This document shows positions 1 to 63,524 of a DNA stretch of 64,000 nucleotides, piece by piece (positions within the stretch are counted from its first letter, which is position 1; every line of letters starts with the position of its first letter). Position numbers and translations under genes: made by a program. The DNA comes from Schistosoma haematobium (Eukaryota > Platyhelminthes > Trematoda > Strigeidida > Schistosomatidae): contig NC_067197.1 of NCBI RefSeq assembly GCF_000699445.3, forward strand, positions 8,128,152 through 8,192,151. Reading direction: 5' to 3'. The notes beneath the pieces are model-generated. The model ran no database searches, had not been told where the DNA came from, and saw only the letters and a program-made list of their open reading frames with translations.

Positions 1-2
1 TG

Positions 3-836
3 CAACAACAACTATTTGAAACAGTTTTGGGCAGACTTTTCATTCAACCAGAAAATAAGGAATCTATTTATGTTGCAGATAATGGTGCAGCAATGGACAA
101 TTCAGAAGCATATCCTGTGGAGGATTCACATCCCTTTATACCTGAATCAGAACGTAATATTTGTAACGTATCCGGCTCACAGCAAGAAAATACTGTTCTA
201 AATGCTCATGAAGTTGTGACAATACCAGATGATCAAGAACCAGATCCTGTAGATGAAGCCCAGAGTCCAGAATTGAATGAAACGCTACTGGTTCTGTCTA
301 GCTCTGAAAATAAACTCCAGCTCGAACAAAATTGTGATCCACGTGCTATTAGTCGAGAAAGCTGTGGGGACTCGTATTCAGAAAATAACTGGGGCAACAC
401 GATGAACCCAACTGTACCAAATGTTACTCAAAATAATTGGGAGACAAAAATTTATATTGAACTGGATTATCTAATTTCTCATGACAATGTACTAGATATG
501 GGTTCTTATAATAATGCACAGAATTTTGATGAGATTTCTTATAAAAATGAAAATATATCGGCTGTTTCAAATGATGGTCAAAAATCTAATTTAATTTTGT
601 TAGGCGTTGACTTTCTTAATGACTCATTATCTACTAACGAGATTCATAATGAATTTGGAAGTAAGGACCCCAAGTCGATGGTCGTTCATCATCATCTAGT
701 CATTTTTAGTGGATTCTCCATTCAATACGAGAAACATGGTTTAATCAAAGTCCTATTAGTTGTAATTTGGAGACATAAGGACCCAACATTATTTCGCGGA
801 GGAGGAGAATGTTGGAGTATTTATAGTTACACATAA
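3..836 (+). CDS. Array ORF, copy cut by the left window edge
   Basis: The reading frame is already open at base 3, inside the glutamine-rich N-terminal segment, and ends with TAA at 834-836. It lacks only about the first 33 residues, which lie outside the window. It matches the other array ORFs. Confidence 0.6.
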   Translation, partial: QQQLFETVLGRLFIQPENKESIYVADNGAAMDNSEAYPVEDSHPFIPESERNICNVSGSQQENTVLNAHEVVTIPDDQEPDPVDEAQSPELNETLLVLSSSENKLQLEQNCDPRAISRESCGDSYSENNWGNTMNPTVPNVTQNNWETKIYIELDYLISHDNVLDMGSYNNAQNFDEISYKNENISAVSNDGQKSNLILLGVDFLNDSLSTNEIHNEFGSKDPKSMVVHHHLVIFSGFSIQYEKHGLIKVLLVVIWRHKDPTLFRGGGECWSIYSYT

Positions 837-885
837 TTTTTTCTAAAATCAGAATCTAAACTTGGAATCTTAAAAAAAAGGGAGG

Positions 886-1403
886 TGTTATATCCGGTGA
901 AGATTAAGTTACAGGTAATTTCCGAGGACTATTCATGGACTAATATTCTATAATATCCTTATTGTATAACTACTCAACAATTACACTATGTATATTTGTA
1001 TTCCTTTTATGATAAGCTTTATTTTGACCTATAATTTATTATTGTACGATTTACGCTTCTTAAGTTATGTTCAGTTTATTAACTAATGCCTCCCACATTC
1101 ACAGCCACTTTTTGGCTTATTTGTGTACAAGTATTATTTCCTATTTTATGGTACGTTGCGGTCTGCGTGATTGATATATAAACCAAGTATGTCTGAAATA
1201 AATGATCTGCTCTGATTCGGAAGCTGGTATTGTGTTCTGTACTCAAGTGGAAGGGCTCGTAGGACATAGGACCAATAAGGACGCTAAACTGCCCACACCG
1301 GTTGAACGTCATTGGTTGGCCTAGTGTGAAGATTCGTATAAGTCGTATTCGGATTGGTAGATAAATCGTGCGATAGAAAAACCAGACATCCAAGGTCATA
1401 ACA
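886..1403 (+). mobile_element. LTR of the array element (first complete copy)
   Basis: This 518-bp LTR starts TGTTATATCC and ends GGTCATAACA, giving TG...CA termini and a 6-bp inverted tip (TGTTAT/ATAACA). It is preceded by a polypurine tract and followed by a primer binding site, the standard arrangement of an LTR element. A TATA box lies at 1175-1182 and an AATAAA at 1197-1202. The same middle region, including the TATA box, recurs in the diverged solo LTRs at 43749, 55396 and 59305. Confidence 0.9.
1175..1182 (+). promoter_or_regulatory. Putative LTR TATA box
   Basis: TATATAAA stands about 290 bp into the LTR. The three diverged related LTRs keep TATATAAA at the equivalent place, which supports it as the core promoter. 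An AATAAA follows 15 bp after its end and could serve as the poly(A) signal for transcripts ending in the same LTR. The same site is present in all 19 LTRs. Confidence 0.6.
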
Positions 1404-1405
1404 AT

Positions 1406-1423
1406 TGGCGACGGGGATTTTGG
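1406..1423 (+). promoter_or_regulatory. Primer binding site of the LTR element
   Basis: Two bases after the LTR end comes TGGCGACGGGGATTTTGG. It starts with TGG, the complement of a tRNA CCA end, as expected for a minus-strand primer site. I could not assign the tRNA. An (AAT)6 run follows at about 1430. The site recurs two bases after the LTR in all units except the last, where the array ends at the LTR boundary. Confidence 0.7.
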
Positions 1424-1536
1424 CAACAAAATAATAATAATAATAATACAACAAGTGCTGACTCAGATTTTGGAAATAAATTAGCTGTTATAATTGCCGG
1501 TGATTTTTGGCGTTAATATTATTATTGGCACAAAAA

Positions 1537-2469
1537 ATGTCGATTTCTTTAGAACAGTTGCAGTTAATATTACAGCTACAGCACCAGCAGATGTTAGCCT
1601 TCCAACAACAACAGAACCAGCAGATGTTAGTCTTGCAACAACAACTATTTGAAACAGTTTTGGGCAGACTTTTCATTCAACCAGAAAATAAGGAATCTAT
1701 TTATGTTGCAGATAATGGTGCAGCAATGGACAATTCAGAAGCATATCCTGTGGAGGATTCACATCCCTTTATACCTGAATCAGAACGTAATATTTGTAAC
1801 GTATCCGGCTCACAGCAAGAAAATACTGTTCTAAATGCTCATGAAGTTGTGACAATACCAGATGATCAAGAACCAGATCCTGTAGATGAAGCCCAGAGTC
1901 CAGAATTGAATGAAACGCTACTGGTTCTGTCTAGCTCTGAAAATAAACTCCAGCTCGAACAAAATTGTGATCCACGTGCTATTAGTCGAGAAAGCTGTGG
2001 GGACTCGTATTCAGAAAATAACTGGGGCAACACGATGAACCCAACTGTACCAAATGTTACTCAAAATAATTGGGAGACAAAAATTTATATTGAACTGGAT
2101 TATCTAATTTCTCATGACAATGTACTAGATATGGGTTCTTATAATAATGCACAGAATTTTGATGAGATTTCTTATAAAAATGAAAATATATCGGCTGTTT
2201 CAAATGATGGTCAAAAATCTAATTTAATTTTGTTAGGCGTTGACTTTCTTAATGACTCATTATCTACTAACGAGATTCATAATGAATTTGGAAGTAAGGA
2301 CCCCAAGTCGATGGTCGTTCATCATCATCTAGTCATTTTTAGTGGATTCTCCATTCAATACGAGAAACATGGTTTAATCAAAGTCCTATTAGTTGTAATT
2401 TGGAGACATAAGGACCCAACATTATTTCGCGGAGGAGGAGAATGTTGGAGTATTTATAGTTACACATAA
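1537..2469 (+). CDS. Array ORF copy 1: Q-rich 310-aa protein of a non-autonomous LTR element, possible gag stub
   Basis: The ORF starts with the ATG that opens MSISLEQLQL and encodes 310 residues. Residues 1-40 are a leucine/glutamine-rich stretch with 15 Gln in the first 36 residues, likely helical or coiled-coil, similar in style to N-termini of Ty3/gypsy Gag. Residues 55-170 are acidic and Asn/Ser rich, without any domain I know. Residues 255-310 are more hydrophobic and basic and end just before the polypurine tract, where the end of pol would lie in a complete element. There is no CCHC knuckle, no protease active site, no reverse transcriptase YxDD and no integrase HHCC. The likeliest reading is a Gag N-terminus joined by a large deletion to the 3' end of the parent element; an unrelated captured segment in the middle is an alternative. 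I chose this ATG because upstream ATGs are in frame only in some copies, depending on an A-run of 5 to 7. Here the run is 6 and an in-frame ATG at 1507 adds 10 residues. Confidence 0.6.
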   Translation: MSISLEQLQLILQLQHQQMLAFQQQQNQQMLVLQQQLFETVLGRLFIQPENKESIYVADNGAAMDNSEAYPVEDSHPFIPESERNICNVSGSQQENTVLNAHEVVTIPDDQEPDPVDEAQSPELNETLLVLSSSENKLQLEQNCDPRAISRESCGDSYSENNWGNTMNPTVPNVTQNNWETKIYIELDYLISHDNVLDMGSYNNAQNFDEISYKNENISAVSNDGQKSNLILLGVDFLNDSLSTNEIHNEFGSKDPKSMVVHHHLVIFSGFSIQYEKHGLIKVLLVVIWRHKDPTLFRGGGECWSIYSYT

Positions 2470-2509
2470 TTTTTTCTAAAATCAGAATCTAAACTTGGAA
2501 TCTTAAAAA

Positions 2510-2520
2510 AAAAAGGGAGG
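2510..2520 (+). promoter_or_regulatory. Polypurine tract of the LTR element
   Basis: An A-run followed by GGGAGG directly abuts the LTR start at 2521. This is the usual position and composition of the plus-strand priming tract. The A-run varies from about 6 to 10 between units. Confidence 0.7.
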
Positions 2521-3171
2521 TGTTATATCCGGTGAAGATTAAGTTACAGGTAATTTCCGAGGACTATTCATGGACTAATATTCTATAATATCCTTATTGT
2601 ATAACTACTCAACAATTACACTATGTATATTTGTATTCCTTTTATGATAAGCTTTATTTTGACCTATAATTTATTATTGTACGATTTACGCTTCTTAAGT
2701 TATGTTCAGTTTATTAACTAATGCCTCCCACATTCACAGCCACTTTTTGGCTTATTTGTGTACAAGTATTATTTCCTATTTTATGGTACGTTGCGGTCTG
2801 CGTGATTGATATATAAACCAAGTATGTCTGAAATAAATGATCTGCTCTGATTCGGAAGCTGGTATTGTGTTCTGTACTCAAGTGGAAGGGCTCGTAGGAC
2901 ATAGGACCAATAAGGACGCTAAACTGCCCACACCGGTTGAACGTCATTGGTTGGCCTAGTGTGAAGATTCGTATAAGTCGTATTCGGATTGGTAGATAAA
3001 TCGTGCGATAGAAAAACCAGACATCCAAGGTCATAACAATTGGCGACGGGGATTTTGGCAACAAAATAATAATAATAATAATACAACAAGTGCTGACTCA
3101 GATTTTGGAAATAAATTAGCTGTTATAATTGCCGGTGATTTTTGGCGTTAATATTATTATTGGCACAAAAA

Positions 3172-4104
3172 ATGTCGATTTCTTTAGAACAGTTGCAGTT
3201 AATATTACAGCTACAGCACCAGCAGATGTTAGCCTTCCAACAACAACAGAACCAGCAGATGTTAGTCTTGCAACAACAACTATTTGAAACAGTTTTGGGC
3301 AGACTTTTCATTCAACCAGAAAATAAGGAATCTATTTATGTTGCAGATAATGGTGCAGCAATGGACAATTCAGAAGCATATCCTGTGGAGGATTCACATC
3401 CCTTTATACCTGAATCAGAACGTAATATTTGTAACGTATCCGGCTCACAGCAAGAAAATACTGTTCTAAATGCTCATGAAGTTGTGACAATACCAGATGA
3501 TCAAGAACCAGATCCTGTAGATGAAGCCCAGAGTCCAGAATTGAATGAAACGCTACTGGTTCTGTCTAGCTCTGAAAATAAACTCCAGCTCGAACAAAAT
3601 TGTGATCCACGTGCTATTAGTCGAGAAAGCTGTGGGGACTCGTATTCAGAAAATAACTGGGGCAACACGATGAACCCAACTGTACCAAATGTTACTCAAA
3701 ATAATTGGGAGACAAAAATTTATATTGAACTGGATTATCTAATTTCTCATGACAATGTACTAGATATGGGTTCTTATAATAATGCACAGAATTTTGATGA
3801 GATTTCTTATAAAAATGAAAATATATCGGCTGTTTCAAATGATGGTCAAAAATCTAATTTAATTTTGTTAGGCGTTGACTTTCTTAATGACTCATTATCT
3901 ACTAACGAGATTCATAATGAATTTGGAAGTAAGGACCCCAAGTCGATGGTCGTTCATCATCATCTAGTCATTTTTAGTGGATTCTCCATTCAATACGAGA
4001 AACATGGTTTAATCAAAGTCCTATTAGTTGTAATTTGGAGACATAAGGACCCAACATTATTTCGCGGAGGAGGAGAATGTTGGAGTATTTATAGTTACAC
4101 ATAA
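3172..4104 (+). CDS. Array ORF copy 2
   Basis: Same 310-residue product as copy 1. The A-run before the start is 6, so the frame stays open back to an ATG at 3142. Confidence 0.55.
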   Translation: MSISLEQLQLILQLQHQQMLAFQQQQNQQMLVLQQQLFETVLGRLFIQPENKESIYVADNGAAMDNSEAYPVEDSHPFIPESERNICNVSGSQQENTVLNAHEVVTIPDDQEPDPVDEAQSPELNETLLVLSSSENKLQLEQNCDPRAISRESCGDSYSENNWGNTMNPTVPNVTQNNWETKIYIELDYLISHDNVLDMGSYNNAQNFDEISYKNENISAVSNDGQKSNLILLGVDFLNDSLSTNEIHNEFGSKDPKSMVVHHHLVIFSGFSIQYEKHGLIKVLLVVIWRHKDPTLFRGGGECWSIYSYT

Positions 4105-4805
4105 TTTTTTCTAAAATCAGAATCTAAACTTGGAATCTTAAAAAAAAGGGAGGTGTTATATCCGGTGAAGATTAAGTTACAGGTAATTTCCGAGGACTAT
4201 TCATGGACTAATATTCTATAATATCCTTATTGTATAACTACTCAACAATTACACTATGTATATTTGTATTCCTTTTATGATAAGCTTTATTTTGACCTAT
4301 AATTTATTATTGTACGATTTACGCTTCTTAAGTTATGTTCAGTTTATTAACTAATGCCTCCCACATTCACAGCCACTTTTTGGCTTATTTGTGTACAAGT
4401 ATTATTTCCTATTTTATGGTACGTTGCGGTCTGCGTGATTGATATATAAACCAAGTATGTCTGAAATAAATGATCTGCTCTGATTCGGAAGCTGGTATTG
4501 TGTTCTGTACTCAAGTGGAAGGGCTCGTAGGACATAGGACCAATAAGGACGCTAAACTGCCCACACCGGTTGAACGTCATTGGTTGGCCTAGTGTGAAGA
4601 TTCGTATAAGTCGTATTCGGATTGGTAGATAAATCGTGCGATAGAAAAACCAGACATCCAAGGTCATAACAATTGGCGACGGGGATTTTGGCAACAAAAT
4701 AATAATAATAATAATACAACAAGTGCTGACTCAGATTTTGGAAATAAATTAGCTGTTATAATTGCCGGTGATTTTTGGCGTTAATATTATTATTGGCACA
4801 AAAAA

Positions 4806-5738
4806 ATGTCGATTTCTTTAGAACAGTTGCAGTTAATATTACAGCTACAGCACCAGCAGATGTTAGCCTTCCAACAACAACAGAACCAGCAGATGTTAGT
4901 CTTGCAACAACAACTATTTGAAACAGTTTTGGGCAGACTTTTCATTCAACCAGAAAATAAGGAATCTATTTATGTTGCAGATAATGGTGCAGCAATGGAC
5001 AATTCAGAAGCATATCCTGTGGAGGATTCACATCCCTTTATACCTGAATCAGAACGTAATATTTGTAACGTATCCGGCTCACAGCAAGAAAATACTGTTC
5101 TAAATGCTCATGAAGTTGTGACAATACCAGATGATCAAGAACCAGATCCTGTAGATGAAGCCCAGAGTCCAGAATTGAATGAAACGCTACTGGTTCTGTC
5201 TAGCTCTGAAAATAAACTCCAGCTCGAACAAAATTGTGATCCACGTGCTATTAGTCGAGAAAGCTGTGGGGACTCGTATTCAGAAAATAACTGGGGCAAC
5301 ACGATGAACCCAACTGTACCAAATGTTACTCAAAATAATTGGGAGACAAAAATTTATATTGAACTGGATTATCTAATTTCTCATGACAATGTACTAGATA
5401 TGGGTTCTTATAATAATGCACAGAATTTTGATGAGATTTCTTATAAAAATGAAAATATATCGGCTGTTTCAAATGATGGTCAAAAATCTAATTTAATTTT
5501 GTTAGGCGTTGACTTTCTTAATGACTCATTATCTACTAACGAGATTCATAATGAATTTGGAAGTAAGGACCCCAAGTCGATGGTCGTTCATCATCATCTA
5601 GTCATTTTTAGTGGATTCTCCATTCAATACGAGAAACATGGTTTAATCAAAGTCCTATTAGTTGTAATTTGGAGACATAAGGACCCAACATTATTTCGCG
5701 GAGGAGGAGAATGTTGGAGTATTTATAGTTACACATAA
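4806..5738 (+). CDS. Array ORF copy 3
   Basis: Identical product. The A-run before the start is 7, which puts the upstream ATG out of frame and leaves 4806 as the first start. The A-run of the polypurine tract behind it is the shortest I saw (6). Confidence 0.55.
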   Translation: MSISLEQLQLILQLQHQQMLAFQQQQNQQMLVLQQQLFETVLGRLFIQPENKESIYVADNGAAMDNSEAYPVEDSHPFIPESERNICNVSGSQQENTVLNAHEVVTIPDDQEPDPVDEAQSPELNETLLVLSSSENKLQLEQNCDPRAISRESCGDSYSENNWGNTMNPTVPNVTQNNWETKIYIELDYLISHDNVLDMGSYNNAQNFDEISYKNENISAVSNDGQKSNLILLGVDFLNDSLSTNEIHNEFGSKDPKSMVVHHHLVIFSGFSIQYEKHGLIKVLLVVIWRHKDPTLFRGGGECWSIYSYT

Positions 5739-6436
5739 TTTTTTCTAAAATCAGAATCTAAACTTGGAATCTTAAAAAAGGGAGGTGTTATATCCGGTGA
5801 AGATTAAGTTACAGGTAATTTCCGAGGACTATTCATGGACTAATATTCTATAATATCCTTATTGTATAACTACTCAACAATTACACTATGTATATTTGTA
5901 TTCCTTTTATGATAAGCTTTATTTTGACCTATAATTTATTATTGTACGATTTACGCTTCTTAAGTTATGTTCAGTTTATTAACTAATGCCTCCCACATTC
6001 ACAGCCACTTTTTGGCTTATTTGTGTACAAGTATTATTTCCTATTTTATGGTACGTTGCGGTCTGCGTGATTGATATATAAACCAAGTATGTCTGAAATA
6101 AATGATCTGCTCTGATTCGGAAGCTGGTATTGTGTTCTGTACTCAAGTGGAAGGGCTCGTAGGACATAGGACCAATAAGGACGCTAAACTGCCCACACCG
6201 GTTGAACGTCATTGGTTGGCCTAGTGTGAAGATTCGTATAAGTCGTATTCGGATTGGTAGATAAATCGTGCGATAGAAAAACCAGACATCCAAGGTCATA
6301 ACAATTGGCGACGGGGATTTTGGCAACAAAATAATAATAATAATAATACAACAAGTGCTGACTCAGATTTTGGAAATAAATTAGCTGTTATAATTGCCGG
6401 TGATTTTTGGCGTTAATATTATTATTGGCACAAAAA

Positions 6437-7369
6437 ATGTCGATTTCTTTAGAACAGTTGCAGTTAATATTACAGCTACAGCACCAGCAGATGTTAGCCT
6501 TCCAACAACAACAGAACCAGCAGATGTTAGTCTTGCAACAACAACTATTTGAAACAGTTTTGGGCAGACTTTTCATTCAACCAGAAAATAAGGAATCTAT
6601 TTATGTTGCAGATAATGGTGCAGCAATGGACAATTCAGAAGCATATCCTGTGGAGGATTCACATCCCTTTATACCTGAATCAGAACGTAATATTTGTAAC
6701 GTATCCGGCTCACAGCAAGAAAATACTGTTCTAAATGCTCATGAAGTTGTGACAATACCAGATGATCAAGAACCAGATCCTGTAGATGAAGCCCAGAGTC
6801 CAGAATTGAATGAAACGCTACTGGTTCTGTCTAGCTCTGAAAATAAACTCCAGCTCGAACAAAATTGTGATCCACGTGCTATTAGTCGAGAAAGCTGTGG
6901 GGACTCGTATTCAGAAAATAACTGGGGCAACACGATGAACCCAACTGTACCAAATGTTACTCAAAATAATTGGGAGACAAAAATTTATATTGAACTGGAT
7001 TATCTAATTTCTCATGACAATGTACTAGATATGGGTTCTTATAATAATGCACAGAATTTTGATGAGATTTCTTATAAAAATGAAAATATATCGGCTGTTT
7101 CAAATGATGGTCAAAAATCTAATTTAATTTTGTTAGGCGTTGACTTTCTTAATGACTCATTATCTACTAACGAGATTCATAATGAATTTGGAAGTAAGGA
7201 CCCCAAGTCGATGGTCGTTCATCATCATCTAGTCATTTTTAGTGGATTCTCCATTCAATACGAGAAACATGGTTTAATCAAAGTCCTATTAGTTGTAATT
7301 TGGAGACATAAGGACCCAACATTATTTCGCGGAGGAGGAGAATGTTGGAGTATTTATAGTTACACATAA
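6437..7369 (+). CDS. Array ORF copy 4
   Basis: Identical product. A-run of 6, so an ATG at 6407 is in frame and could add 10 residues. Confidence 0.55.
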   Translation: MSISLEQLQLILQLQHQQMLAFQQQQNQQMLVLQQQLFETVLGRLFIQPENKESIYVADNGAAMDNSEAYPVEDSHPFIPESERNICNVSGSQQENTVLNAHEVVTIPDDQEPDPVDEAQSPELNETLLVLSSSENKLQLEQNCDPRAISRESCGDSYSENNWGNTMNPTVPNVTQNNWETKIYIELDYLISHDNVLDMGSYNNAQNFDEISYKNENISAVSNDGQKSNLILLGVDFLNDSLSTNEIHNEFGSKDPKSMVVHHHLVIFSGFSIQYEKHGLIKVLLVVIWRHKDPTLFRGGGECWSIYSYT

Positions 7370-8070
7370 TTTTTTCTAAAATCAGAATCTAAACTTGGAA
7401 TCTTAAAAAAAAGGGAGGTGTTATATCCGGTGAAGATTAAGTTACAGGTAATTTCCGAGGACTATTCATGGACTAATATTCTATAATATCCTTATTGTAT
7501 AACTACTCAACAATTACACTATGTATATTTGTATTCCTTTTATGATAAGCTTTATTTTGACCTATAATTTATTATTGTACGATTTACGCTTCTTAAGTTA
7601 TGTTCAGTTTATTAACTAATGCCTCCCACATTCACAGCCACTTTTTGGCTTATTTGTGTACAAGTATTATTTCCTATTTTATGGTACGTTGCGGTCTGCG
7701 TGATTGATATATAAACCAAGTATGTCTGAAATAAATGATCTGCTCTGATTCGGAAGCTGGTATTGTGTTCTGTACTCAAGTGGAAGGGCTCGTAGGACAT
7801 AGGACCAATAAGGACGCTAAACTGCCCACACCGGTTGAACGTCATTGGTTGGCCTAGTGTGAAGATTCGTATAAGTCGTATTCGGATTGGTAGATAAATC
7901 GTGCGATAGAAAAACCAGACATCCAAGGTCATAACAATTGGCGACGGGGATTTTGGCAACAAAATAATAATAATAATAATACAACAAGTGCTGACTCAGA
8001 TTTTGGAAATAAATTAGCTGTTATAATTGCCGGTGATTTTTGGCGTTAATATTATTATTGGCACAAAAAA

Positions 8071-9003: not shown

Positions 9004-9705
9004 TTTTTTCTAAAATCAGAATCTAAACTTGGAATCTTAAAAAAAAAGGGAGGTGTTATATCCGGTGAAGATTAAGTTACAGGTAATTTCCGAGGACTAT
9101 TCATGGACTAATATTCTATAATATCCTTATTGTATAACTACTCAACAATTACACTATGTATATTTGTATTCCTTTTATGATAAGCTTTATTTTGACCTAT
9201 AATTTATTATTGTACGATTTACGCTTCTTAAGTTATGTTCAGTTTATTAACTAATGCCTCCCACATTCACAGCCACTTTTTGGCTTATTTGTGTACAAGT
9301 ATTATTTCCTATTTTATGGTACGTTGCGGTCTGCGTGATTGATATATAAACCAAGTATGTCTGAAATAAATGATCTGCTCTGATTCGGAAGCTGGTATTG
9401 TGTTCTGTACTCAAGTGGAAGGGCTCGTAGGACATAGGACCAATAAGGACGCTAAACTGCCCACACCGGTTGAACGTCATTGGTTGGCCTAGTGTGAAGA
9501 TTCGTATAAGTCGTATTCGGATTGGTAGATAAATCGTGCGATAGAAAAACCAGACATCCAAGGTCATAACAATTGGCGACGGGGATTTTGGCAACAAAAT
9601 AATAATAATAATAATACAACAAGTGCTGACTCAGATTTTGGAAATAAATTAGCTGTTATAATTGCCGGTGATTTTTGGCGTTAATATTATTATTGGCACA
9701 AAAAA

Positions 9706-10638: not shown

Positions 10639-11340
10639 TTTTTTCTAAAATCAGAATCTAAACTTGGAATCTTAAAAAAAAAAGGGAGGTGTTATATCCG
10701 GTGAAGATTAAGTTACAGGTAATTTCCGAGGACTATTCATGGACTAATATTCTATAATATCCTTATTGTATAACTACTCAACAATTACACTATGTATATT
10801 TGTATTCCTTTTATGATAAGCTTTATTTTGACCTATAATTTATTATTGTACGATTTACGCTTCTTAAGTTATGTTCAGTTTATTAACTAATGCCTCCCAC
10901 ATTCACAGCCACTTTTTGGCTTATTTGTGTACAAGTATTATTTCCTATTTTATGGTACGTTGCGGTCTGCGTGATTGATATATAAACCAAGTATGTCTGA
11001 AATAAATGATCTGCTCTGATTCGGAAGCTGGTATTGTGTTCTGTACTCAAGTGGAAGGGCTCGTAGGACATAGGACCAATAAGGACGCTAAACTGCCCAC
11101 ACCGGTTGAACGTCATTGGTTGGCCTAGTGTGAAGATTCGTATAAGTCGTATTCGGATTGGTAGATAAATCGTGCGATAGAAAAACCAGACATCCAAGGT
11201 CATAACAATTGGCGACGGGGATTTTGGCAACAAAATAATAATAATAATAATACAACAAGTGCTGACTCAGATTTTGGAAATAAATTAGCTGTTATAATTG
11301 CCGGTGATTTTTGGCGTTAATATTATTATTGGCACAAAAA

Positions 11341-12273: not shown

Positions 12274-12974
12274 TTTTTTCTAAAATCAGAATCTAAACTT
12301 GGAATCTTAAAAAAAAGGGAGGTGTTATATCCGGTGAAGATTAAGTTACAGGTAATTTCCGAGGACTATTCATGGACTAATATTCTATAATATCCTTATT
12401 GTATAACTACTCAACAATTACACTATGTATATTTGTATTCCTTTTATGATAAGCTTTATTTTGACCTATAATTTATTATTGTACGATTTACGCTTCTTAA
12501 GTTATGTTCAGTTTATTAACTAATGCCTCCCACATTCACAGCCACTTTTTGGCTTATTTGTGTACAAGTATTATTTCCTATTTTATGGTACGTTGCGGTC
12601 TGCGTGATTGATATATAAACCAAGTATGTCTGAAATAAATGATCTGCTCTGATTCGGAAGCTGGTATTGTGTTCTGTACTCAAGTGGAAGGGCTCGTAGG
12701 ACATAGGACCAATAAGGACGCTAAACTGCCCACACCGGTTGAACGTCATTGGTTGGCCTAGTGTGAAGATTCGTATAAGTCGTATTCGGATTGGTAGATA
12801 AATCGTGCGATAGAAAAACCAGACATCCAAGGTCATAACAATTGGCGACGGGGATTTTGGCAACAAAATAATAATAATAATAATACAACAAGTGCTGACT
12901 CAGATTTTGGAAATAAATTAGCTGTTATAATTGCCGGTGATTTTTGGCGTTAATATTATTATTGGCACAAAAAA

Positions 12975-13907: not shown

Positions 13908-14606
13908 TTTTTTCTAAAATCAGAATCTAAACTTGGAATCTTAAAAAAAAGGGAGGTGTTATATCCGGTGAAGATTAAGTTACAGGTAATTTCCGAGGAC
14001 TATTCATGGACTAATATTCTATAATATCCTTATTGTATAACTACTCAACAATTACACTATGTATATTTGTATTCCTTTTATGATAAGCTTTATTTTGACC
14101 TATAATTTATTATTGTACGATTTACGCTTCTTAAGTTATGTTCAGTTTATTAACTAATGCCTCCCACATTCACAGCCACTTTTTGGCTTATTTGTGTACA
14201 AGTATTATTTCCTATTTTATGGTACGTTGCGGTCTGCGTGATTGATATATAAACCAAGTATGTCTGAAATAAATGATCTGCTCTGATTCGGAAGCTGGTA
14301 TTGTGTTCTGTACTCAAGTGGAAGGGCTCGTAGGACATAGGACCAATAAGGACGCTAAACTGCCCACACCGGTTGAACGTCATTGGTTGGCCTAGTGTGA
14401 AGATTCGTATAAGTCGTATTCGGATTGGTAGATAAATCGTGCGATAGAAAAACCAGACATCCAAGGTCATAACAATTGGCGACGGGGATTTTGGCAACAA
14501 AATAATAATAATAATAATACAACAAGTGCTGACTCAGATTTTGGAAATAAATTAGCTGTTATAATTGCCGGTGATTTTTGGCGTTAATATTATTATTGGC
14601 ACAAAA

Positions 14607-15539: not shown

Positions 15540-16239
15540 TTTTTCTAAAATCAGAATCTAAACTTGGAATCTTAAAAAAAAGGGAGGTGTTATATCCGGT
15601 GAAGATTAAGTTACAGGTAATTTCCGAGGACTATTCATGGACTAATATTCTATAATATCCTTATTGTATAACTACTCAACAATTACACTATGTATATTTG
15701 TATTCCTTTTATGATAAGCTTTATTTTGACCTATAATTTATTATTGTACGATTTACGCTTCTTAAGTTATGTTCAGTTTATTAACTAATGCCTCCCACAT
15801 TCACAGCCACTTTTTGGCTTATTTGTGTACAAGTATTATTTCCTATTTTATGGTACGTTGCGGTCTGCGTGATTGATATATAAACCAAGTATGTCTGAAA
15901 TAAATGATCTGCTCTGATTCGGAAGCTGGTATTGTGTTCTGTACTCAAGTGGAAGGGCTCGTAGGACATAGGACCAATAAGGACGCTAAACTGCCCACAC
16001 CGGTTGAACGTCATTGGTTGGCCTAGTGTGAAGATTCGTATAAGTCGTATTCGGATTGGTAGATAAATCGTGCGATAGAAAAACCAGACATCCAAGGTCA
16101 TAACAATTGGCGACGGGGATTTTGGCAACAAAATAATAATAATAATAATACAACAAGTGCTGACTCAGATTTTGGAAATAAATTAGCTGTTATAATTGCC
16201 GGTGATTTTTGGCGTTAATATTATTATTGGCACAAAAAA

Positions 16240-17172: not shown

Positions 17173-17873
17173 TTTTTTCTAAAATCAGAATCTAAACTTG
17201 GAATCTTAAAAAAAAGGGAGGTGTTATATCCGGTGAAGATTAAGTTACAGGTAATTTCCGAGGACTATTCATGGACTAATATTCTATAATATCCTTATTG
17301 TATAACTACTCAACAATTACACTATGTATATTTGTATTCCTTTTATGATAAGCTTTATTTTGACCTATAATTTATTATTGTACGATTTACGCTTCTTAAG
17401 TTATGTTCAGTTTATTAACTAATGCCTCCCACATTCACAGCCACTTTTTGGCTTATTTGTGTACAAGTATTATTTCCTATTTTATGGTACGTTGCGGTCT
17501 GCGTGATTGATATATAAACCAAGTATGTCTGAAATAAATGATCTGCTCTGATTCGGAAGCTGGTATTGTGTTCTGTACTCAAGTGGAAGGGCTCGTAGGA
17601 CATAGGACCAATAAGGACGCTAAACTGCCCACACCGGTTGAACGTCATTGGTTGGCCTAGTGTGAAGATTCGTATAAGTCGTATTCGGATTGGTAGATAA
17701 ATCGTGCGATAGAAAAACCAGACATCCAAGGTCATAACAATTGGCGACGGGGATTTTGGCAACAAAATAATAATAATAATAATACAACAAGTGCTGACTC
17801 AGATTTTGGAAATAAATTAGCTGTTATAATTGCCGGTGATTTTTGGCGTTAATATTATTATTGGCACAAAAAA

Positions 17874-18806: not shown

Positions 18807-19506
18807 TTTTTCTAAAATCAGAATCTAAACTTGGAATCTTAAAAAAAAGGGAGGTGTTATATCCGGTGAAGATTAAGTTACAGGTAATTTCCGAGGACTA
18901 TTCATGGACTAATATTCTATAATATCCTTATTGTATAACTACTCAACAATTACACTATGTATATTTGTATTCCTTTTATGATAAGCTTTATTTTGACCTA
19001 TAATTTATTATTGTACGATTTACGCTTCTTAAGTTATGTTCAGTTTATTAACTAATGCCTCCCACATTCACAGCCACTTTTTGGCTTATTTGTGTACAAG
19101 TATTATTTCCTATTTTATGGTACGTTGCGGTCTGCGTGATTGATATATAAACCAAGTATGTCTGAAATAAATGATCTGCTCTGATTCGGAAGCTGGTATT
19201 GTGTTCTGTACTCAAGTGGAAGGGCTCGTAGGACATAGGACCAATAAGGACGCTAAACTGCCCACACCGGTTGAACGTCATTGGTTGGCCTAGTGTGAAG
19301 ATTCGTATAAGTCGTATTCGGATTGGTAGATAAATCGTGCGATAGAAAAACCAGACATCCAAGGTCATAACAATTGGCGACGGGGATTTTGGCAACAAAA
19401 TAATAATAATAATAATACAACAAGTGCTGACTCAGATTTTGGAAATAAATTAGCTGTTATAATTGCCGGTGATTTTTGGCGTTAATATTATTATTGGCAC
19501 AAAAAA

Positions 19507-20439: not shown

Positions 20440-21140
20440 TTTTTTCTAAAATCAGAATCTAAACTTGGAATCTTAAAAAAAAGGGAGGTGTTATATCCGG
20501 TGAAGATTAAGTTACAGGTAATTTCCGAGGACTATTCATGGACTAATATTCTATAATATCCTTATTGTATAACTACTCAACAATTACACTATGTATATTT
20601 GTATTCCTTTTATGATAAGCTTTATTTTGACCTATAATTTATTATTGTACGATTTACGCTTCTTAAGTTATGTTCAGTTTATTAACTAATGCCTCCCACA
20701 TTCACAGCCACTTTTTGGCTTATTTGTGTACAAGTATTATTTCCTATTTTATGGTACGTTGCGGTCTGCGTGATTGATATATAAACCAAGTATGTCTGAA
20801 ATAAATGATCTGCTCTGATTCGGAAGCTGGTATTGTGTTCTGTACTCAAGTGGAAGGGCTCGTAGGACATAGGACCAATAAGGACGCTAAACTGCCCACA
20901 CCGGTTGAACGTCATTGGTTGGCCTAGTGTGAAGATTCGTATAAGTCGTATTCGGATTGGTAGATAAATCGTGCGATAGAAAAACCAGACATCCAAGGTC
21001 ATAACAATTGGCGACGGGGATTTTGGCAACAAAATAATAATAATAATAATACAACAAGTGCTGACTCAGATTTTGGAAATAAATTAGCTGTTATAATTGC
21101 CGGTGATTTTTGGCGTTAATATTATTATTGGCACAAAAAA

Positions 21141-22073: not shown

Positions 22074-22774
22074 TTTTTTCTAAAATCAGAATCTAAACTT
22101 GGAATCTTAAAAAAAAAGGGAGGTGTTATATCCGGTGAAGATTAAGTTACAGGTAATTTCCGAGGACTATTCATGGACTAATATTCTATAATATCCTTAT
22201 TGTATAACTACTCAACAATTACACTATGTATATTTGTATTCCTTTTATGATAAGCTTTATTTTGACCTATAATTTATTATTGTACGATTTACGCTTCTTA
22301 AGTTATGTTCAGTTTATTAACTAATGCCTCCCACATTCACAGCCACTTTTTGGCTTATTTGTGTACAAGTATTATTTCCTATTTTATGGTACGTTGCGGT
22401 CTGCGTGATTGATATATAAACCAAGTATGTCTGAAATAAATGATCTGCTCTGATTCGGAAGCTGGTATTGTGTTCTGTACTCAAGTGGAAGGGCTCGTAG
22501 GACATAGGACCAATAAGGACGCTAAACTGCCCACACCGGTTGAACGTCATTGGTTGGCCTAGTGTGAAGATTCGTATAAGTCGTATTCGGATTGGTAGAT
22601 AAATCGTGCGATAGAAAAACCAGACATCCAAGGTCATAACAATTGGCGACGGGGATTTTGGCAACAAAATAATAATAATAATAATACAACAAGTGCTGAC
22701 TCAGATTTTGGAAATAAATTAGCTGTTATAATTGCCGGTGATTTTTGGCGTTAATATTATTATTGGCACAAAAA

Positions 22775-23707: not shown

Positions 23708-24407
23708 TTTTTTCTAAAATCAGAATCTAAACTTGGAATCTTAAAAAAAAGGGAGGTGTTATATCCGGTGAAGATTAAGTTACAGGTAATTTCCGAGGAC
23801 TATTCATGGACTAATATTCTATAATATCCTTATTGTATAACTACTCAACAATTACACTATGTATATTTGTATTCCTTTTATGATAAGCTTTATTTTGACC
23901 TATAATTTATTATTGTACGATTTACGCTTCTTAAGTTATGTTCAGTTTATTAACTAATGCCTCCCACATTCACAGCCACTTTTTGGCTTATTTGTGTACA
24001 AGTATTATTTCCTATTTTATGGTACGTTGCGGTCTGCGTGATTGATATATAAACCAAGTATGTCTGAAATAAATGATCTGCTCTGATTCGGAAGCTGGTA
24101 TTGTGTTCTGTACTCAAGTGGAAGGGCTCGTAGGACATAGGACCAATAAGGACGCTAAACTGCCCACACCGGTTGAACGTCATTGGTTGGCCTAGTGTGA
24201 AGATTCGTATAAGTCGTATTCGGATTGGTAGATAAATCGTGCGATAGAAAAACCAGACATCCAAGGTCATAACAATTGGCGACGGGGATTTTGGCAACAA
24301 AATAATAATAATAATAATACAACAAGTGCTGACTCAGATTTTGGAAATAAATTAGCTGTTATAATTGCCGGTGATTTTTGGCGTTAATATTATTATTGGC
24401 ACAAAAA

Positions 24408-25340
24408 ATGTCGATTTCTTTAGAACAGTTGCAGTTAATATTACAGCTACAGCACCAGCAGATGTTAGCCTTCCAACAACAACAGAACCAGCAGATGTTA
24501 GTCTTGCAACAACAACTATTTGAAACAGTTTTGGGCAGACTTTTCATTCAACCAGAAAATAAGGAATCTATTTATGTTGCAGATAATGGTGCAGCAATGG
24601 ACAATTCAGAAGCATATCCTGTGGAGGATTCACATCCCTTTATACCTGAATCAGAACGTAATATTTGTAACGTATCCGGCTCACAGCAAGAAAATACTGT
24701 TCTAAATGCTCATGAAGTTGTGACAATACCAGATGATCAAGAACCAGATCCTGTAGATGAAGCCCAGAGTCCAGAATTGAATGAAACGCTACTGGTTCTG
24801 TCTAGCTCTGAAAATAAACTCCAGCTCGAACAAAATTGTGATCCACGTGCTATTAGTCGAGAAAGCTGTGGGGACTCGTATTCAGAAAATAACTGGGGCA
24901 ACACGATGAACCCAACTGTACCAAATGTTACTCAAAATAATTGGGAGACAAAAATTTATATTGAACTGGATTATCTAATTTCTCATGACAATGTACTAGA
25001 TATGGGTTCTTATAATAATGCACAGAATTTTGATGAGATTTCTTATAAAAATGAAAATATATCGGCTGTTTCAAATGATGGTCAAAAATCTAATTTAATT
25101 TTGTTAGGCGTTGACTTTCTTAATGACTCATTATCTACTAACGAGATTCATAATGAATTTGGAAGTAAGGACCCCAAGTCGATGGTCGTTCATCATCATC
25201 TAGTCATTTTTAGTGGATTCTCCATTCAATACGAGAAACATGGTTTAATCAAAGTCCTATTAGTTGTAATTTGGAGACATAAGGACCCAACATTATTTCG
25301 CGGAGGAGGAGAATGTTGGAGTATTTATAGTTACACATAA
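24408..25340 (+). CDS. Array ORF copy 15
   Basis: Identical product. A-run of 6, with an in-frame ATG at 24378. Confidence 0.55.
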   Translation: MSISLEQLQLILQLQHQQMLAFQQQQNQQMLVLQQQLFETVLGRLFIQPENKESIYVADNGAAMDNSEAYPVEDSHPFIPESERNICNVSGSQQENTVLNAHEVVTIPDDQEPDPVDEAQSPELNETLLVLSSSENKLQLEQNCDPRAISRESCGDSYSENNWGNTMNPTVPNVTQNNWETKIYIELDYLISHDNVLDMGSYNNAQNFDEISYKNENISAVSNDGQKSNLILLGVDFLNDSLSTNEIHNEFGSKDPKSMVVHHHLVIFSGFSIQYEKHGLIKVLLVVIWRHKDPTLFRGGGECWSIYSYT

Positions 25341-26040
25341 TTTTTTCTAAAATCAGAATCTAAACTTGGAATCTTAAAAAAAAGGGAGGTGTTATATCCG
25401 GTGAAGATTAAGTTACAGGTAATTTCCGAGGACTATTCATGGACTAATATTCTATAATATCCTTATTGTATAACTACTCAACAATTACACTATGTATATT
25501 TGTATTCCTTTTATGATAAGCTTTATTTTGACCTATAATTTATTATTGTACGATTTACGCTTCTTAAGTTATGTTCAGTTTATTAACTAATGCCTCCCAC
25601 ATTCACAGCCACTTTTTGGCTTATTTGTGTACAAGTATTATTTCCTATTTTATGGTACGTTGCGGTCTGCGTGATTGATATATAAACCAAGTATGTCTGA
25701 AATAAATGATCTGCTCTGATTCGGAAGCTGGTATTGTGTTCTGTACTCAAGTGGAAGGGCTCGTAGGACATAGGACCAATAAGGACGCTAAACTGCCCAC
25801 ACCGGTTGAACGTCATTGGTTGGCCTAGTGTGAAGATTCGTATAAGTCGTATTCGGATTGGTAGATAAATCGTGCGATAGAAAAACCAGACATCCAAGGT
25901 CATAACAATTGGCGACGGGGATTTTGGCAACAAAATAATAATAATAATAATACAACAAGTGCTGACTCAGATTTTGGAAATAAATTAGCTGTTATAATTG
26001 CCGGTGATTTTTGGCGTTAATATTATTATTGGCACAAAAA

Positions 26041-26973
26041 ATGTCGATTTCTTTAGAACAGTTGCAGTTAATATTACAGCTACAGCACCAGCAGATGTTA
26101 GCCTTCCAACAACAACAGAACCAGCAGATGTTAGTCTTGCAACAACAACTATTTGAAACAGTTTTGGGCAGACTTTTCATTCAACCAGAAAATAAGGAAT
26201 CTATTTATGTTGCAGATAATGGTGCAGCAATGGACAATTCAGAAGCATATCCTGTGGAGGATTCACATCCCTTTATACCTGAATCAGAACGTAATATTTG
26301 TAACGTATCCGGCTCACAGCAAGAAAATACTGTTCTAAATGCTCATGAAGTTGTGACAATACCAGATGATCAAGAACCAGATCCTGTAGATGAAGCCCAG
26401 AGTCCAGAATTGAATGAAACGCTACTGGTTCTGTCTAGCTCTGAAAATAAACTCCAGCTCGAACAAAATTGTGATCCACGTGCTATTAGTCGAGAAAGCT
26501 GTGGGGACTCGTATTCAGAAAATAACTGGGGCAACACGATGAACCCAACTGTACCAAATGTTACTCAAAATAATTGGGAGACAAAAATTTATATTGAACT
26601 GGATTATCTAATTTCTCATGACAATGTACTAGATATGGGTTCTTATAATAATGCACAGAATTTTGATGAGATTTCTTATAAAAATGAAAATATATCGGCT
26701 GTTTCAAATGATGGTCAAAAATCTAATTTAATTTTGTTAGGCGTTGACTTTCTTAATGACTCATTATCTACTAACGAGATTCATAATGAATTTGGAAGTA
26801 AGGACCCCAAGTCGATGGTCGTTCATCATCATCTAGTCATTTTTAGTGGATTCTCCATTCAATACGAGAAACATGGTTTAATCAAAGTCCTATTAGTTGT
26901 AATTTGGAGACATAAGGACCCAACATTATTTCGCGGAGGAGGAGAATGTTGGAGTATTTATAGTTACACATAA
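26041..26973 (+). CDS. Array ORF copy 16
   Basis: Identical product. A-run of 6, with an in-frame ATG at 26011. Confidence 0.55.
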   Translation: MSISLEQLQLILQLQHQQMLAFQQQQNQQMLVLQQQLFETVLGRLFIQPENKESIYVADNGAAMDNSEAYPVEDSHPFIPESERNICNVSGSQQENTVLNAHEVVTIPDDQEPDPVDEAQSPELNETLLVLSSSENKLQLEQNCDPRAISRESCGDSYSENNWGNTMNPTVPNVTQNNWETKIYIELDYLISHDNVLDMGSYNNAQNFDEISYKNENISAVSNDGQKSNLILLGVDFLNDSLSTNEIHNEFGSKDPKSMVVHHHLVIFSGFSIQYEKHGLIKVLLVVIWRHKDPTLFRGGGECWSIYSYT

Positions 26974-27674
26974 TTTTTTCTAAAATCAGAATCTAAACTT
27001 GGAATCTTAAAAAAAAAGGGAGGTGTTATATCCGGTGAAGATTAAGTTACAGGTAATTTCCGAGGACTATTCATGGACTAATATTCTATAATATCCTTAT
27101 TGTATAACTACTCAACAATTACACTATGTATATTTGTATTCCTTTTATGATAAGCTTTATTTTGACCTATAATTTATTATTGTACGATTTACGCTTCTTA
27201 AGTTATGTTCAGTTTATTAACTAATGCCTCCCACATTCACAGCCACTTTTTGGCTTATTTGTGTACAAGTATTATTTCCTATTTTATGGTACGTTGCGGT
27301 CTGCGTGATTGATATATAAACCAAGTATGTCTGAAATAAATGATCTGCTCTGATTCGGAAGCTGGTATTGTGTTCTGTACTCAAGTGGAAGGGCTCGTAG
27401 GACATAGGACCAATAAGGACGCTAAACTGCCCACACCGGTTGAACGTCATTGGTTGGCCTAGTGTGAAGATTCGTATAAGTCGTATTCGGATTGGTAGAT
27501 AAATCGTGCGATAGAAAAACCAGACATCCAAGGTCATAACAATTGGCGACGGGGATTTTGGCAACAAAATAATAATAATAATAATACAACAAGTGCTGAC
27601 TCAGATTTTGGAAATAAATTAGCTGTTATAATTGCCGGTGATTTTTGGCGTTAATATTATTATTGGCACAAAAA

Positions 27675-28607
27675 ATGTCGATTTCTTTAGAACAGTTGCA
27701 GTTAATATTACAGCTACAGCACCAGCAGATGTTAGCCTTCCAACAACAACAGAACCAGCAGATGTTAGTCTTGCAACAACAACTATTTGAAACAGTTTTG
27801 GGCAGACTTTTCATTCAACCAGAAAATAAGGAATCTATTTATGTTGCAGATAATGGTGCAGCAATGGACAATTCAGAAGCATATCCTGTGGAGGATTCAC
27901 ATCCCTTTATACCTGAATCAGAACGTAATATTTGTAACGTATCCGGCTCACAGCAAGAAAATACTGTTCTAAATGCTCATGAAGTTGTGACAATACCAGA
28001 TGATCAAGAACCAGATCCTGTAGATGAAGCCCAGAGTCCAGAATTGAATGAAACGCTACTGGTTCTGTCTAGCTCTGAAAATAAACTCCAGCTCGAACAA
28101 AATTGTGATCCACGTGCTATTAGTCGAGAAAGCTGTGGGGACTCGTATTCAGAAAATAACTGGGGCAACACGATGAACCCAACTGTACCAAATGTTACTC
28201 AAAATAATTGGGAGACAAAAATTTATATTGAACTGGATTATCTAATTTCTCATGACAATGTACTAGATATGGGTTCTTATAATAATGCACAGAATTTTGA
28301 TGAGATTTCTTATAAAAATGAAAATATATCGGCTGTTTCAAATGATGGTCAAAAATCTAATTTAATTTTGTTAGGCGTTGACTTTCTTAATGACTCATTA
28401 TCTACTAACGAGATTCATAATGAATTTGGAAGTAAGGACCCCAAGTCGATGGTCGTTCATCATCATCTAGTCATTTTTAGTGGATTCTCCATTCAATACG
28501 AGAAACATGGTTTAATCAAAGTCCTATTAGTTGTAATTTGGAGACATAAGGACCCAACATTATTTCGCGGAGGAGGAGAATGTTGGAGTATTTATAGTTA
28601 CACATAA
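27675..28607 (+). CDS. Array ORF copy 17
   Basis: Identical product. A-run of 6, with an in-frame ATG at 27645. Confidence 0.55.
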   Translation: MSISLEQLQLILQLQHQQMLAFQQQQNQQMLVLQQQLFETVLGRLFIQPENKESIYVADNGAAMDNSEAYPVEDSHPFIPESERNICNVSGSQQENTVLNAHEVVTIPDDQEPDPVDEAQSPELNETLLVLSSSENKLQLEQNCDPRAISRESCGDSYSENNWGNTMNPTVPNVTQNNWETKIYIELDYLISHDNVLDMGSYNNAQNFDEISYKNENISAVSNDGQKSNLILLGVDFLNDSLSTNEIHNEFGSKDPKSMVVHHHLVIFSGFSIQYEKHGLIKVLLVVIWRHKDPTLFRGGGECWSIYSYT

Positions 28608-29309
28608 TTTTTTCTAAAATCAGAATCTAAACTTGGAATCTTAAAAAAAAAGGGAGGTGTTATATCCGGTGAAGATTAAGTTACAGGTAATTTCCGAGGA
28701 CTATTCATGGACTAATATTCTATAATATCCTTATTGTATAACTACTCAACAATTACACTATGTATATTTGTATTCCTTTTATGATAAGCTTTATTTTGAC
28801 CTATAATTTATTATTGTACGATTTACGCTTCTTAAGTTATGTTCAGTTTATTAACTAATGCCTCCCACATTCACAGCCACTTTTTGGCTTATTTGTGTAC
28901 AAGTATTATTTCCTATTTTATGGTACGTTGCGGTCTGCGTGATTGATATATAAACCAAGTATGTCTGAAATAAATGATCTGCTCTGATTCGGAAGCTGGT
29001 ATTGTGTTCTGTACTCAAGTGGAAGGGCTCGTAGGACATAGGACCAATAAGGACGCTAAACTGCCCACACCGGTTGAACGTCATTGGTTGGCCTAGTGTG
29101 AAGATTCGTATAAGTCGTATTCGGATTGGTAGATAAATCGTGCGATAGAAAAACCAGACATCCAAGGTCATAACAATTGGCGACGGGGATTTTGGCAACA
29201 AAATAATAATAATAATAATACAACAAGTGCTGACTCAGATTTTGGAAATAAATTAGCTGTTATAATTGCCGGTGATTTTTGGCGTTAATATTATTATTGG
29301 CACAAAAAA

Positions 29310-30242
29310 ATGTCGATTTCTTTAGAACAGTTGCAGTTAATATTACAGCTACAGCACCAGCAGATGTTAGCCTTCCAACAACAACAGAACCAGCAGATGT
29401 TAGTCTTGCAACAACAACTATTTGAAACAGTTTTGGGCAGACTTTTCATTCAACCAGAAAATAAGGAATCTATTTATGTTGCAGATAATGGTGCAGCAAT
29501 GGACAATTCAGAAGCATATCCTGTGGAGGATTCACATCCCTTTATACCTGAATCAGAACGTAATATTTGTAACGTATCCGGCTCACAGCAAGAAAATACT
29601 GTTCTAAATGCTCATGAAGTTGTGACAATACCAGATGATCAAGAACCAGATCCTGTAGATGAAGCCCAGAGTCCAGAATTGAATGAAACGCTACTGGTTC
29701 TGTCTAGCTCTGAAAATAAACTCCAGCTCGAACAAAATTGTGATCCACGTGCTATTAGTCGAGAAAGCTGTGGGGACTCGTATTCAGAAAATAACTGGGG
29801 CAACACGATGAACCCAACTGTACCAAATGTTACTCAAAATAATTGGGAGACAAAAATTTATATTGAACTGGATTATCTAATTTCTCATGACAATGTACTA
29901 GATATGGGTTCTTATAATAATGCACAGAATTTTGATGAGATTTCTTATAAAAATGAAAATATATCGGCTGTTTCAAATGATGGTCAAAAATCTAATTTAA
30001 TTTTGTTAGGCGTTGACTTTCTTAATGACTCATTATCTACTAACGAGATTCATAATGAATTTGGAAGTAAGGACCCCAAGTCGATGGTCGTTCATCATCA
30101 TCTAGTCATTTTTAGTGGATTCTCCATTCAATACGAGAAACATGGTTTAATCAAAGTCCTATTAGTTGTAATTTGGAGACATAAGGACCCAACATTATTT
30201 CGCGGAGGAGGAGAATGTTGGAGTATTTATAGTTACACATAA
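29310..30242 (+). CDS. Array ORF copy 18, last in the array
   Basis: Identical product. A-run of 7; shortened T-run after the stop. Only one LTR follows before the array ends, so this internal region is flanked on both sides by complete LTRs. Confidence 0.55.
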   Translation: MSISLEQLQLILQLQHQQMLAFQQQQNQQMLVLQQQLFETVLGRLFIQPENKESIYVADNGAAMDNSEAYPVEDSHPFIPESERNICNVSGSQQENTVLNAHEVVTIPDDQEPDPVDEAQSPELNETLLVLSSSENKLQLEQNCDPRAISRESCGDSYSENNWGNTMNPTVPNVTQNNWETKIYIELDYLISHDNVLDMGSYNNAQNFDEISYKNENISAVSNDGQKSNLILLGVDFLNDSLSTNEIHNEFGSKDPKSMVVHHHLVIFSGFSIQYEKHGLIKVLLVVIWRHKDPTLFRGGGECWSIYSYT

Positions 30243-30290
30243 TTTTTCTAAAATCAGAATCTAAACTTGGAATCTTAAAAAAAAGGGAGG

Positions 30291-30808
30291 TGTTATATCC
30301 GGTGAAGATTAAGTTACAGGTAATTTCCGAGGACTATTCATGGACTAATATTCTATAATATCCTTATTGTATAACTACTCAACAATTACACTATGTATAT
30401 TTGTATTCCTTTTATGATAAGCTTTATTTTGACCTATAATTTATTATTGTACGATTTACGCTTCTTAAGTTATGTTCAGTTTATTAACTAATGCCTCCCA
30501 CATTCACAGCCACTTTTTGGCTTATTTGTGTACAAGTATTATTTCCTATTTTATGGTACGTTGCGGTCTGCGTGATTGATATATAAACCAAGTATGTCTG
30601 AAATAAATGATCTGCTCTGATTCGGAAGCTGGTATTGTGTTCTGTACTCAAGTGGAAGGGCTCGTAGGACATAGGACCAATAAGGACGCTAAACTGCCCA
30701 CACCGGTTGAACGTCATTGGTTGGCCTAGTGTGAAGATTCGTATAAGTCGTATTCGGATTGGTAGATAAATCGTGCGATAGAAAAACCAGACATCCAAGG
30801 TCATAACA
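30291..30808 (+). mobile_element. Terminal LTR closing the array
   Basis: A complete 518-bp LTR ending ATAACA at 30808. The next bases (TTTAG) are unrelated to the internal region, so the array stops at a genuine element end and not at a random break. TTTAG would be the 3' target duplication if the array inserted as one piece; the matching left copy lies outside the window. Confidence 0.85.
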
Positions 30809-38435: not shown

Positions 38436-38561
38436 AAACTTGAGAATAGGTCGGCGATAACGTTATAGGCGTTGAAAACAGAACACTTGATAAATTTCAA
38501 TAGGATCAAAACACTTCAGAAAGGTTTTAGTGCGCATATAGCAAAATTGACATTAGATGCG

Positions 38562-61885: not shown

Positions 61886-61888
61886 AAT

Positions 61889-63520: not shown

Positions 63521-63524
63521 GGAA

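What the first reader, a model, noticed from the sequence alone, without database searches (positions are those of the whole stretch)
1..30808. LTR retrotransposon turned into a >30-kb tandem array with shared LTRs
Nineteen LTRs alternate with internal regions in strict head-to-tail order, each LTR serving as the 3' LTR of one unit and the 5' LTR of the next. Unequal LTR recombination of known retrotransposons usually leaves solo LTRs or two or three tandem units, not about 19 or more. Unit uniformity implies recent amplification or ongoing homogenisation. The result behaves like a satellite but keeps a promoter, priming sites and an ORF in every unit.
Basis: partly seen in the sequence, partly recalled or inferred. 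Interest (0 to 1): 0.88.

Follow-up and report, generated by a model that had tools for sequence, protein, structure and literature searches.

The report
Blood-fluke retrotransposon in tandem array
A small jumping gene of a schistosome blood fluke is repeated head to tail at least eighteen times in the assembled sequence, with shared ends and no base substitution between copies, a large and very young-looking example of a structure already known from plants, clams and kangaroos.

Summary
Window 1-30808 contains 19 direct LTRs of 518 bp alternating with internal regions of 1113-1118 bp, period 1631-1636. All 19 LTRs are identical to the base; the 18 complete internals and the partial first one differ only in the length of three homopolymers. 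The array ends exactly at an LTR end; its left end lies outside the window.

The unit is a non-autonomous, Ty3/gypsy-related LTR element of Schistosoma: PBS-like and PPT-like sites and a 310-aa ORF without Pfam domains, with relatives in 10 named Schistosoma species. The ORF's tail is shared with a gag-like family, whose gag-like part is fused elsewhere to RT, RNase H or integrase.

New member of a known kind, unusual for length in bp and zero substitutions. Recent LTR-LTR recombination is the likeliest cause. Perfect identity makes the assembled copy number unsafe; no reads or genome could be consulted (genome search did not complete).

The parts
1..30808 (+). tandem array: 19 LTRs, 18 complete and 1 partial internal region; reaches the window's left edge
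1..885 (+). partial internal region
   Evidence: suffix of the complete internals after masking three runs
886..1403 (+). LTR 1
2521..3038 (+). LTR 2
4154..4671 (+). LTR 3
5786..6303 (+). LTR 4
7419..7936 (+). LTR 5
9054..9571 (+). LTR 6
10690..11207 (+). LTR 7
12323..12840 (+). LTR 8
13957..14474 (+). LTR 9
15588..16105 (+). LTR 10
17222..17739 (+). LTR 11
18855..19372 (+). LTR 12
20489..21006 (+). LTR 13
22124..22641 (+). LTR 14
23757..24274 (+). LTR 15
25390..25907 (+). LTR 16
27024..27541 (+). LTR 17
28658..29175 (+). LTR 18
30291..30808 (+). LTR 19, abuts the right flank (next five bases TTTAG, the expected half of a 5-bp target-site duplication)
1175..1182 (+). TATA-like box in LTR 1 (LTR position 290); all LTRs are identical
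   Evidence: function inferred
1197..1202 (+). AATAAA in LTR 1 (LTR position 312); all LTRs are identical
   Evidence: function inferred
1406..1416 (+). primer-binding-site-like stretch starting TGG two bases after the LTR; primer tRNA not identified
   Evidence: role inferred
1537..2469 (+). ORF of the first complete unit, 310 aa plus stop; identical protein in all 18 complete units
872..885 (+). polypurine tract (A-run + GGGAGG) directly before LTR 1; A-run length 6-10 among units
55396..55872 (+). related solo LTR (69% identical to the array LTR over aligned sites) with 5/5 flanking duplication CATTT
43749..44230 (+). related solo LTR (68% identical) with 4/5 flanking duplication
59387..59549 (-). 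fragment of a related LTR

Best explanation
The array is made of one small non-autonomous, Ty3/gypsy-related LTR retrotransposon (518-bp LTR, about 1.1-kb internal region, 310-aa ORF, no recognised enzyme domain) of a Schistosoma species, mobilised in trans by an autonomous relative (inferred). One element inserted. Very soon afterwards homologous recombination between its identical LTRs multiplied it into LTR-internal-LTR-internal...LTR. The exchange was either unequal sister-chromatid exchange or recombination with one-LTR circles or cDNA of the same element. Shown: anatomy, identity of units, exact right LTR boundary, solo LTRs of related families nearby. Inferred: the recombination route, and that every unit can still be transcribed from its LTR to the next as a complete element RNA.
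For: 19 of 19 LTRs identical and 18 of 18 complete internals identical outside three homopolymers. LTR and internal abut without extra bases at every junction, so no target-site duplication or foreign DNA lies between units. The array ends exactly at the LTR end. LTR ends carry TGTTAT...ATAACA, with a PBS-like TGG two bases inside and an A-run+GGGAGG PPT. Two related LTRs in the flank look like solo LTRs: one has TSD CATTT/CATTT, the only 5/5 match among the 12 candidate end pairs of the flank, the other 4/5. This suggests 5-bp TSDs and LTR-LTR recombination in these families. ORF relatives: 39 proteins, all 36 named ones Schistosoma. The ORF tail is shared with a family whose N-terminal part carries a zinc knuckle just below Pfam's cut-off. 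Proteins related to that part carry RT, RNase H or integrase: 6 of 65 hits by precomputed Pfam, 3 of the 4 I scanned.
Against: The outer right LTR is as identical as the inner ones, so stepwise growth over time left no trace and a one-step event fits equally well. The run lengths show no neighbour similarity and no clear period, as repeated block duplication might give. No array of this family elsewhere could be examined. The autonomous partner was not shown to share LTRs or PBS, and its link to the unit is indirect. The left end and its TSD half were not seen. The copy number is that of an assembly.
Confidence: 0.6

Rival explanations
1. One-step event: a multimer was integrated as a whole. 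It could come from read-through RNA or template switching during reverse transcription, or from rolling-circle copying of a one-LTR circle.
For: Outer and inner LTRs are equally identical, and there are no substitutions in about 29.9 kb of compared sites. The only differences are homopolymer lengths, which reverse transcriptase or polymerase slippage could give. Concatenated transcripts and template switching are proposed for Cassandra (PMC7215508 discussion), and circle-derived tandem transcripts for plant tandems (PMC11899658 discussion).
Against: 31 kb or more is long for one cDNA; no step of this route was observed. Recombination after insertion gives the same anatomy.
Confidence: 0.22
2. 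Assembly expansion: the chromosome has fewer (or a different number of) units and the assembler unrolled a repeat loop.
For: Units identical to the base apart from homopolymers cannot be placed by reads shorter than the array (reasoning, no reads seen). Homopolymer-only differences, with neither spatial order nor neighbour similarity, are what consensus error gives.
Against: A tandem of at least two units with a clean right junction is needed even for a loop to form. Long shared-LTR arrays are documented elsewhere.
Confidence: 0.15
3. Retrozyme-type element multiplied through self-cleaved circular RNA (hammerhead in the LTR).
For: Hammerhead and twister ribozymes lie in other repeats of the right flank; retrozymes are non-autonomous LTR elements with hammerheads (title and abstract start of PMC4918200 in the listings).
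Against: No Rfam match in window 1-3100, which holds LTRs 1 and 2 and a whole internal, at E up to 1; none in the array at gathering thresholds.
Confidence: 0.01

Closest known systems
biv-TRIM arrays of Ruditapes philippinarum (PMC6934838; passages and section 6 seen)
   Same: Animal, non-autonomous LTR element, alternating LTR and internal region in the form TDRx_I(x-1); longest TDR58_I57
   Different: The longest biv-TRIM locus is given as 16,618 bp, so its unit must be far smaller; here the unit has a 518-bp LTR and a 310-aa ORF, and the array is at least 30.8 kb
Cassandra TRIM long tandem arrays in plants (PMC7215508; abstract and discussion read)
   Same: Head-to-tail, almost identical units with shared LTRs, up to 12 repeats per array
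   Different: Cassandra LTRs carry 5S RNA sequence and the element has no coding capacity; the unit here matches no Rfam family and has an ORF
Kangaroo KERV megasatellite (Koga 2023, seen only as cited in PMC11899658)
   Same: Provirus structure kept in a tandem array with shared LTRs
   Different: In centromeres, an endogenous retrovirus; here a small element, chromosomal place unknown
Tandem LTR-retrotransposons of rice and other plants (PMC11899658; abstract, results, discussion read)
   Same: Shared internal LTRs, gypsy-type predominating, high identity, 5-bp duplications at some loci
   Different: The two loci described in detail have three LTRs and two internals, and the 28 selected structures all encode conserved retrotransposon domains
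Nonaut elements of Schistosoma mansoni (only the names seen, in a passage of review PMC8293314) and ta-TRIMs of taeniid tapeworms (PMC4558846, passages)
   Same: Non-autonomous LTR elements of flatworms (Nonaut: by name and grouping); ta-TRIMs form a few tandem repeats and many solo LTRs

Membership tests
LTR retrotransposon | Direct terminal repeats starting TG and ending CA, with PBS after the 5' LTR and PPT before the 3' LTR | tested here: met
   TGTTAT...ATAACA; TGGCGACGGGG two bases after; A-run GGGAGG before. The primer tRNA itself was not identified
LTR retrotransposon | Target-site duplication flanking the insertion | tested here: inconclusive
   Only the right flank (TTTAG) is in the window. 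A related solo LTR has a 5/5 duplication, another 4/5
Ty3/gypsy superfamily | Pol with RT, RNase H, integrase in gypsy order | tested here: not met
   The unit has no Pfam domain. The link to pol is only through a shared ORF tail and a third family's gag-like part; that this pol is gypsy-type is recalled from its domain order, not tested by a tree. Filed as non-autonomous and gypsy-related
TRIM | Very small element with short LTRs and no coding capacity | tested here: not met
   LTR 518 bp, LTR-internal-LTR about 2.15 kb, 310-aa ORF; size limits recalled. It may work like a TRIM but is larger and coding
Tandem shared-LTR array (TDRx_I(x-1) / TA-TRIM / megasatellite) | Alternating LTRs and internals, same orientation, one LTR shared by neighbours, LTR at the end | tested here: met
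   the left end was not seen
Retrozyme | Hammerhead ribozyme in the LTR | tested here: not met
Schistosoma W-chromosome satellites | Location on W, female-specific | not testable with these tools
   No read depth or chromosome assignment; own-genome search unanswered

The most novel reading that the evidence does not exclude
The array arose in one step from a single circular or concatemeric intermediate of a gag-less retrotransposon in an animal germline. It now acts as a multi-promoter factory in which each of 18 or more units yields a complete, identical element RNA, so the array is both a newborn satellite and the family's main source copy.
Probability: 0.15. Interest if true: 0.65.

Novelty: new member of a known kind. 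Interest (0 to 1): 0.4.

Why it matters
It would catch the birth of a satellite from an LTR element before any substitution has accumulated, with all units still carrying promoter-like and priming sites and an ORF. That makes the open question of the route (unequal exchange versus multimer insertion) testable by comparing individuals. It also suggests a layered dependence in schistosomes: coding gypsy-like elements, gag-only derivatives, and gag-less elements that keep a conserved ORF of unknown role.

Tried and rejected
Retrozyme: no ribozyme in the unit. 5S- or tRNA-derived LTR as in Cassandra, Helenus and Ajax: no Rfam hit in 1-3100 at E up to 1, no tRNA in the window (bacterial settings). 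Higher-order repeat or block duplication: no neighbour similarity of run lengths (fraction of 20,000 shuffles as similar or more: 0.62, 0.56, 0.35) and no preferred lag among 1-8. Empty target site elsewhere in the window: self-comparison at E 1e-5 found no second copy of about the first 310 bases of the right flank. The primer tRNA was not identified: one fluke paper held no such term, another gives tRNA-Trp for CsRn1-like elements without letters that I could compare, and a third was not held. A schistosome mutation rate was not found in a listing of 4 papers, so the age bound rests on a recalled value. One viral-collection scan for the LTR start gave 0 matches.
Full report
Observation. The window from 1 to 30808 is one array. 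The LTR start occurs 19 times on the + strand and never on the other; the starts are 1631-1636 bp apart. All 19 LTRs are 518 bp and are one and the same sequence. The 18 complete internal regions are 1113-1118 bp. Once three homopolymers are masked they are one sequence, and the partial first internal is a suffix of it. So no substitution was seen in 9,842 LTR bases and 20,081 bases of the 18 complete internals, runs included. MAFFT showed some apparent A/G changes at the PPT; they are shifts caused by the run length and vanish when the run is masked. The last LTR ends at 30808 exactly at its CA, and other sequence, TTTAGACAG..., follows. The left end is outside the window.

Variation. The only differences are the lengths of an A-run before the ATG (5-7), a T-run after the stop (5-6) and the PPT A-run (6-10). 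These are the only three homopolymers of six or more bases in the unit examined. The seven 5-base runs and the AAT x 6 stretch do not vary. The run lengths show no neighbour similarity and no period. They may be slippage or consensus error; this cannot be told apart here. All 18 complete units encode one identical 310-aa protein.

Anatomy. LTR ends are TGTTAT...ATAACA. A TATA-like box lies at LTR position 290 and AATAAA at 312. Two bases after the LTR a TGGCGACGGGG stretch looks like a primer-binding site (tRNA not identified). An A-run plus GGGAGG lies directly before the next LTR. From this I infer that transcription from any LTR into the next would give a complete element RNA, so the 19 LTRs make 18 overlapping complete elements. 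Transcription itself is not shown.

Family. The ORF has no Pfam match at E up to 1. A protein search found 39 relatives, all 36 named ones from Schistosoma, in 10 named species (S. japonicum is not among them). Apart from the unnamed P0001, the closest are S. mattheei (88% identity over 86% of the ORF) and S. intercalatum (85% over 89%), which points to a species of the S. haematobium group (grouping recalled); the species is not established. P0001, on a 47.4-Mb contig, differs from the array's protein at one residue, so a second near-identical variant is on record. In an alignment of 13 of the 39 relatives with the ORF the longest constant stretch is C-terminal, DPTLFRGGG. In an S. rodhaini and an S. 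spindalis relative the reading runs on into residues that look like the PPT and LTR start (P0029, P0020, read by eye).

Partners. P0039 (543 aa, S. rodhaini) shares two stretches with the ORF (residues 173-251 and 261-307) but begins with a different part that carries a zinc knuckle below Pfam's cut-off (a related one in P0057 is also just below). I call that part gag-like by its zinc knuckle and its fusion to pol; Pfam does not name it. Searching with P0039 gave 65 proteins. Its N-terminal part matches P0092 (RT and RNase H) and P0099 (RNase H and integrase); P0098 (RT) was also among the hits. Neither P0092 nor P0099 matched the tail of P0039 significantly. So three layers are visible: coding gypsy-like elements, gag-like-only elements, and gag-less elements such as this one. 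That the first mobilises the third is inference. Shared LTRs were not tested, because no schistosome genome could be searched.

Flank. Related LTRs, 68-69% identical to the array LTR over aligned sites, stand as apparent solo LTRs at 55396-55872 with CATTT/CATTT and at 43749-44230 with CAAAT/CAGAT; of 12 candidate end pairs in the flank only the first has a 5/5 duplication. A reversed fragment is at 59387-59549. They support the LTR boundaries, a 5-bp TSD and LTR-LTR recombination in this genome.

Mechanism. Identity of all units, absence of anything between LTR and internal, and the exact right boundary fit LTR-LTR recombination after one insertion, or one-step insertion of a multimer. Both routes are proposed in the literature and were left open there (PMC11899658 discussion; PMC7215508 discussion). 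The identical outer LTR means multiplication happened before the LTRs could diverge, or that homogenisation reaches the edge. With a recalled rate of about 8e-9 per site per generation (not found) and no homogenisation, zero changes in about 29,900 sites bounds the age at roughly 12,500 generations (arithmetic). Ongoing homogenisation would remove that bound. The opposite worry is that perfect identity is also what makes copy number in an assembly unsafe.

Known or new. Plant TRIM arrays are common: 129 subfamilies in 35 of 43 genomes, with L5I4 among the maize examples of the section read (PMC4717578). Cassandra arrays have up to 12 repeats. Clam biv-TRIM goes to 58 terminal repeats and 57 internals, loci up to 16.6 kb. 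Kangaroo KERV forms a megasatellite (cited). Tapeworm ta-TRIMs include a few tandem repeats. For schistosomes, two searches (3 papers; 3 papers) showed no title or abstract start about such an array; of these six only passages of PMC4558846 were seen. The passages seen of the W-element paper and the TE review do not describe one, though the former reports W satellites with partial similarity to LTR retrotransposons. The library lacks most subscription papers, so this is weak evidence of absence. Verdict: new member of a known kind, with unusual length in bp and perfect identity.

Noticed in passing
window 35228-38326, minus strand: Long open frame (1032 aa, stop to stop) with endonuclease and reverse transcriptase domains, probably a nearly whole coding region of a non-LTR retrotransposon; diverged copies of its 3' part at 45714-46625, 60963-61417 and, inverted, 63516-63922.
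   Followed up: partly
window 61884-61953 (+), 38371-38440 (-), 57648-57717 (-): Three type-P1 twister ribozymes above Rfam gathering score, inside a dispersed repeat.
   Followed up: no
window 54435-54479 (+), 47583-47627 (-), 40755-40799 (-), 58231-58276 (-), 47881-47925 (+): Five type-I hammerhead ribozymes above gathering score; schistosome SINE-like repeats are known to carry this type (passages of PMC8490949).
   Followed up: no
proteins P0039 and P0057: Multi-member proteins (35 and 30 cluster members) with a gag-like start and a tail that ends like the array ORF: a second non-autonomous-looking layer without pol.
   Followed up: partly
window 33959-34103: Perfect inverted repeat: two 68-nt arms, 100% complementary, 9 nt apart.
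   Followed up: no
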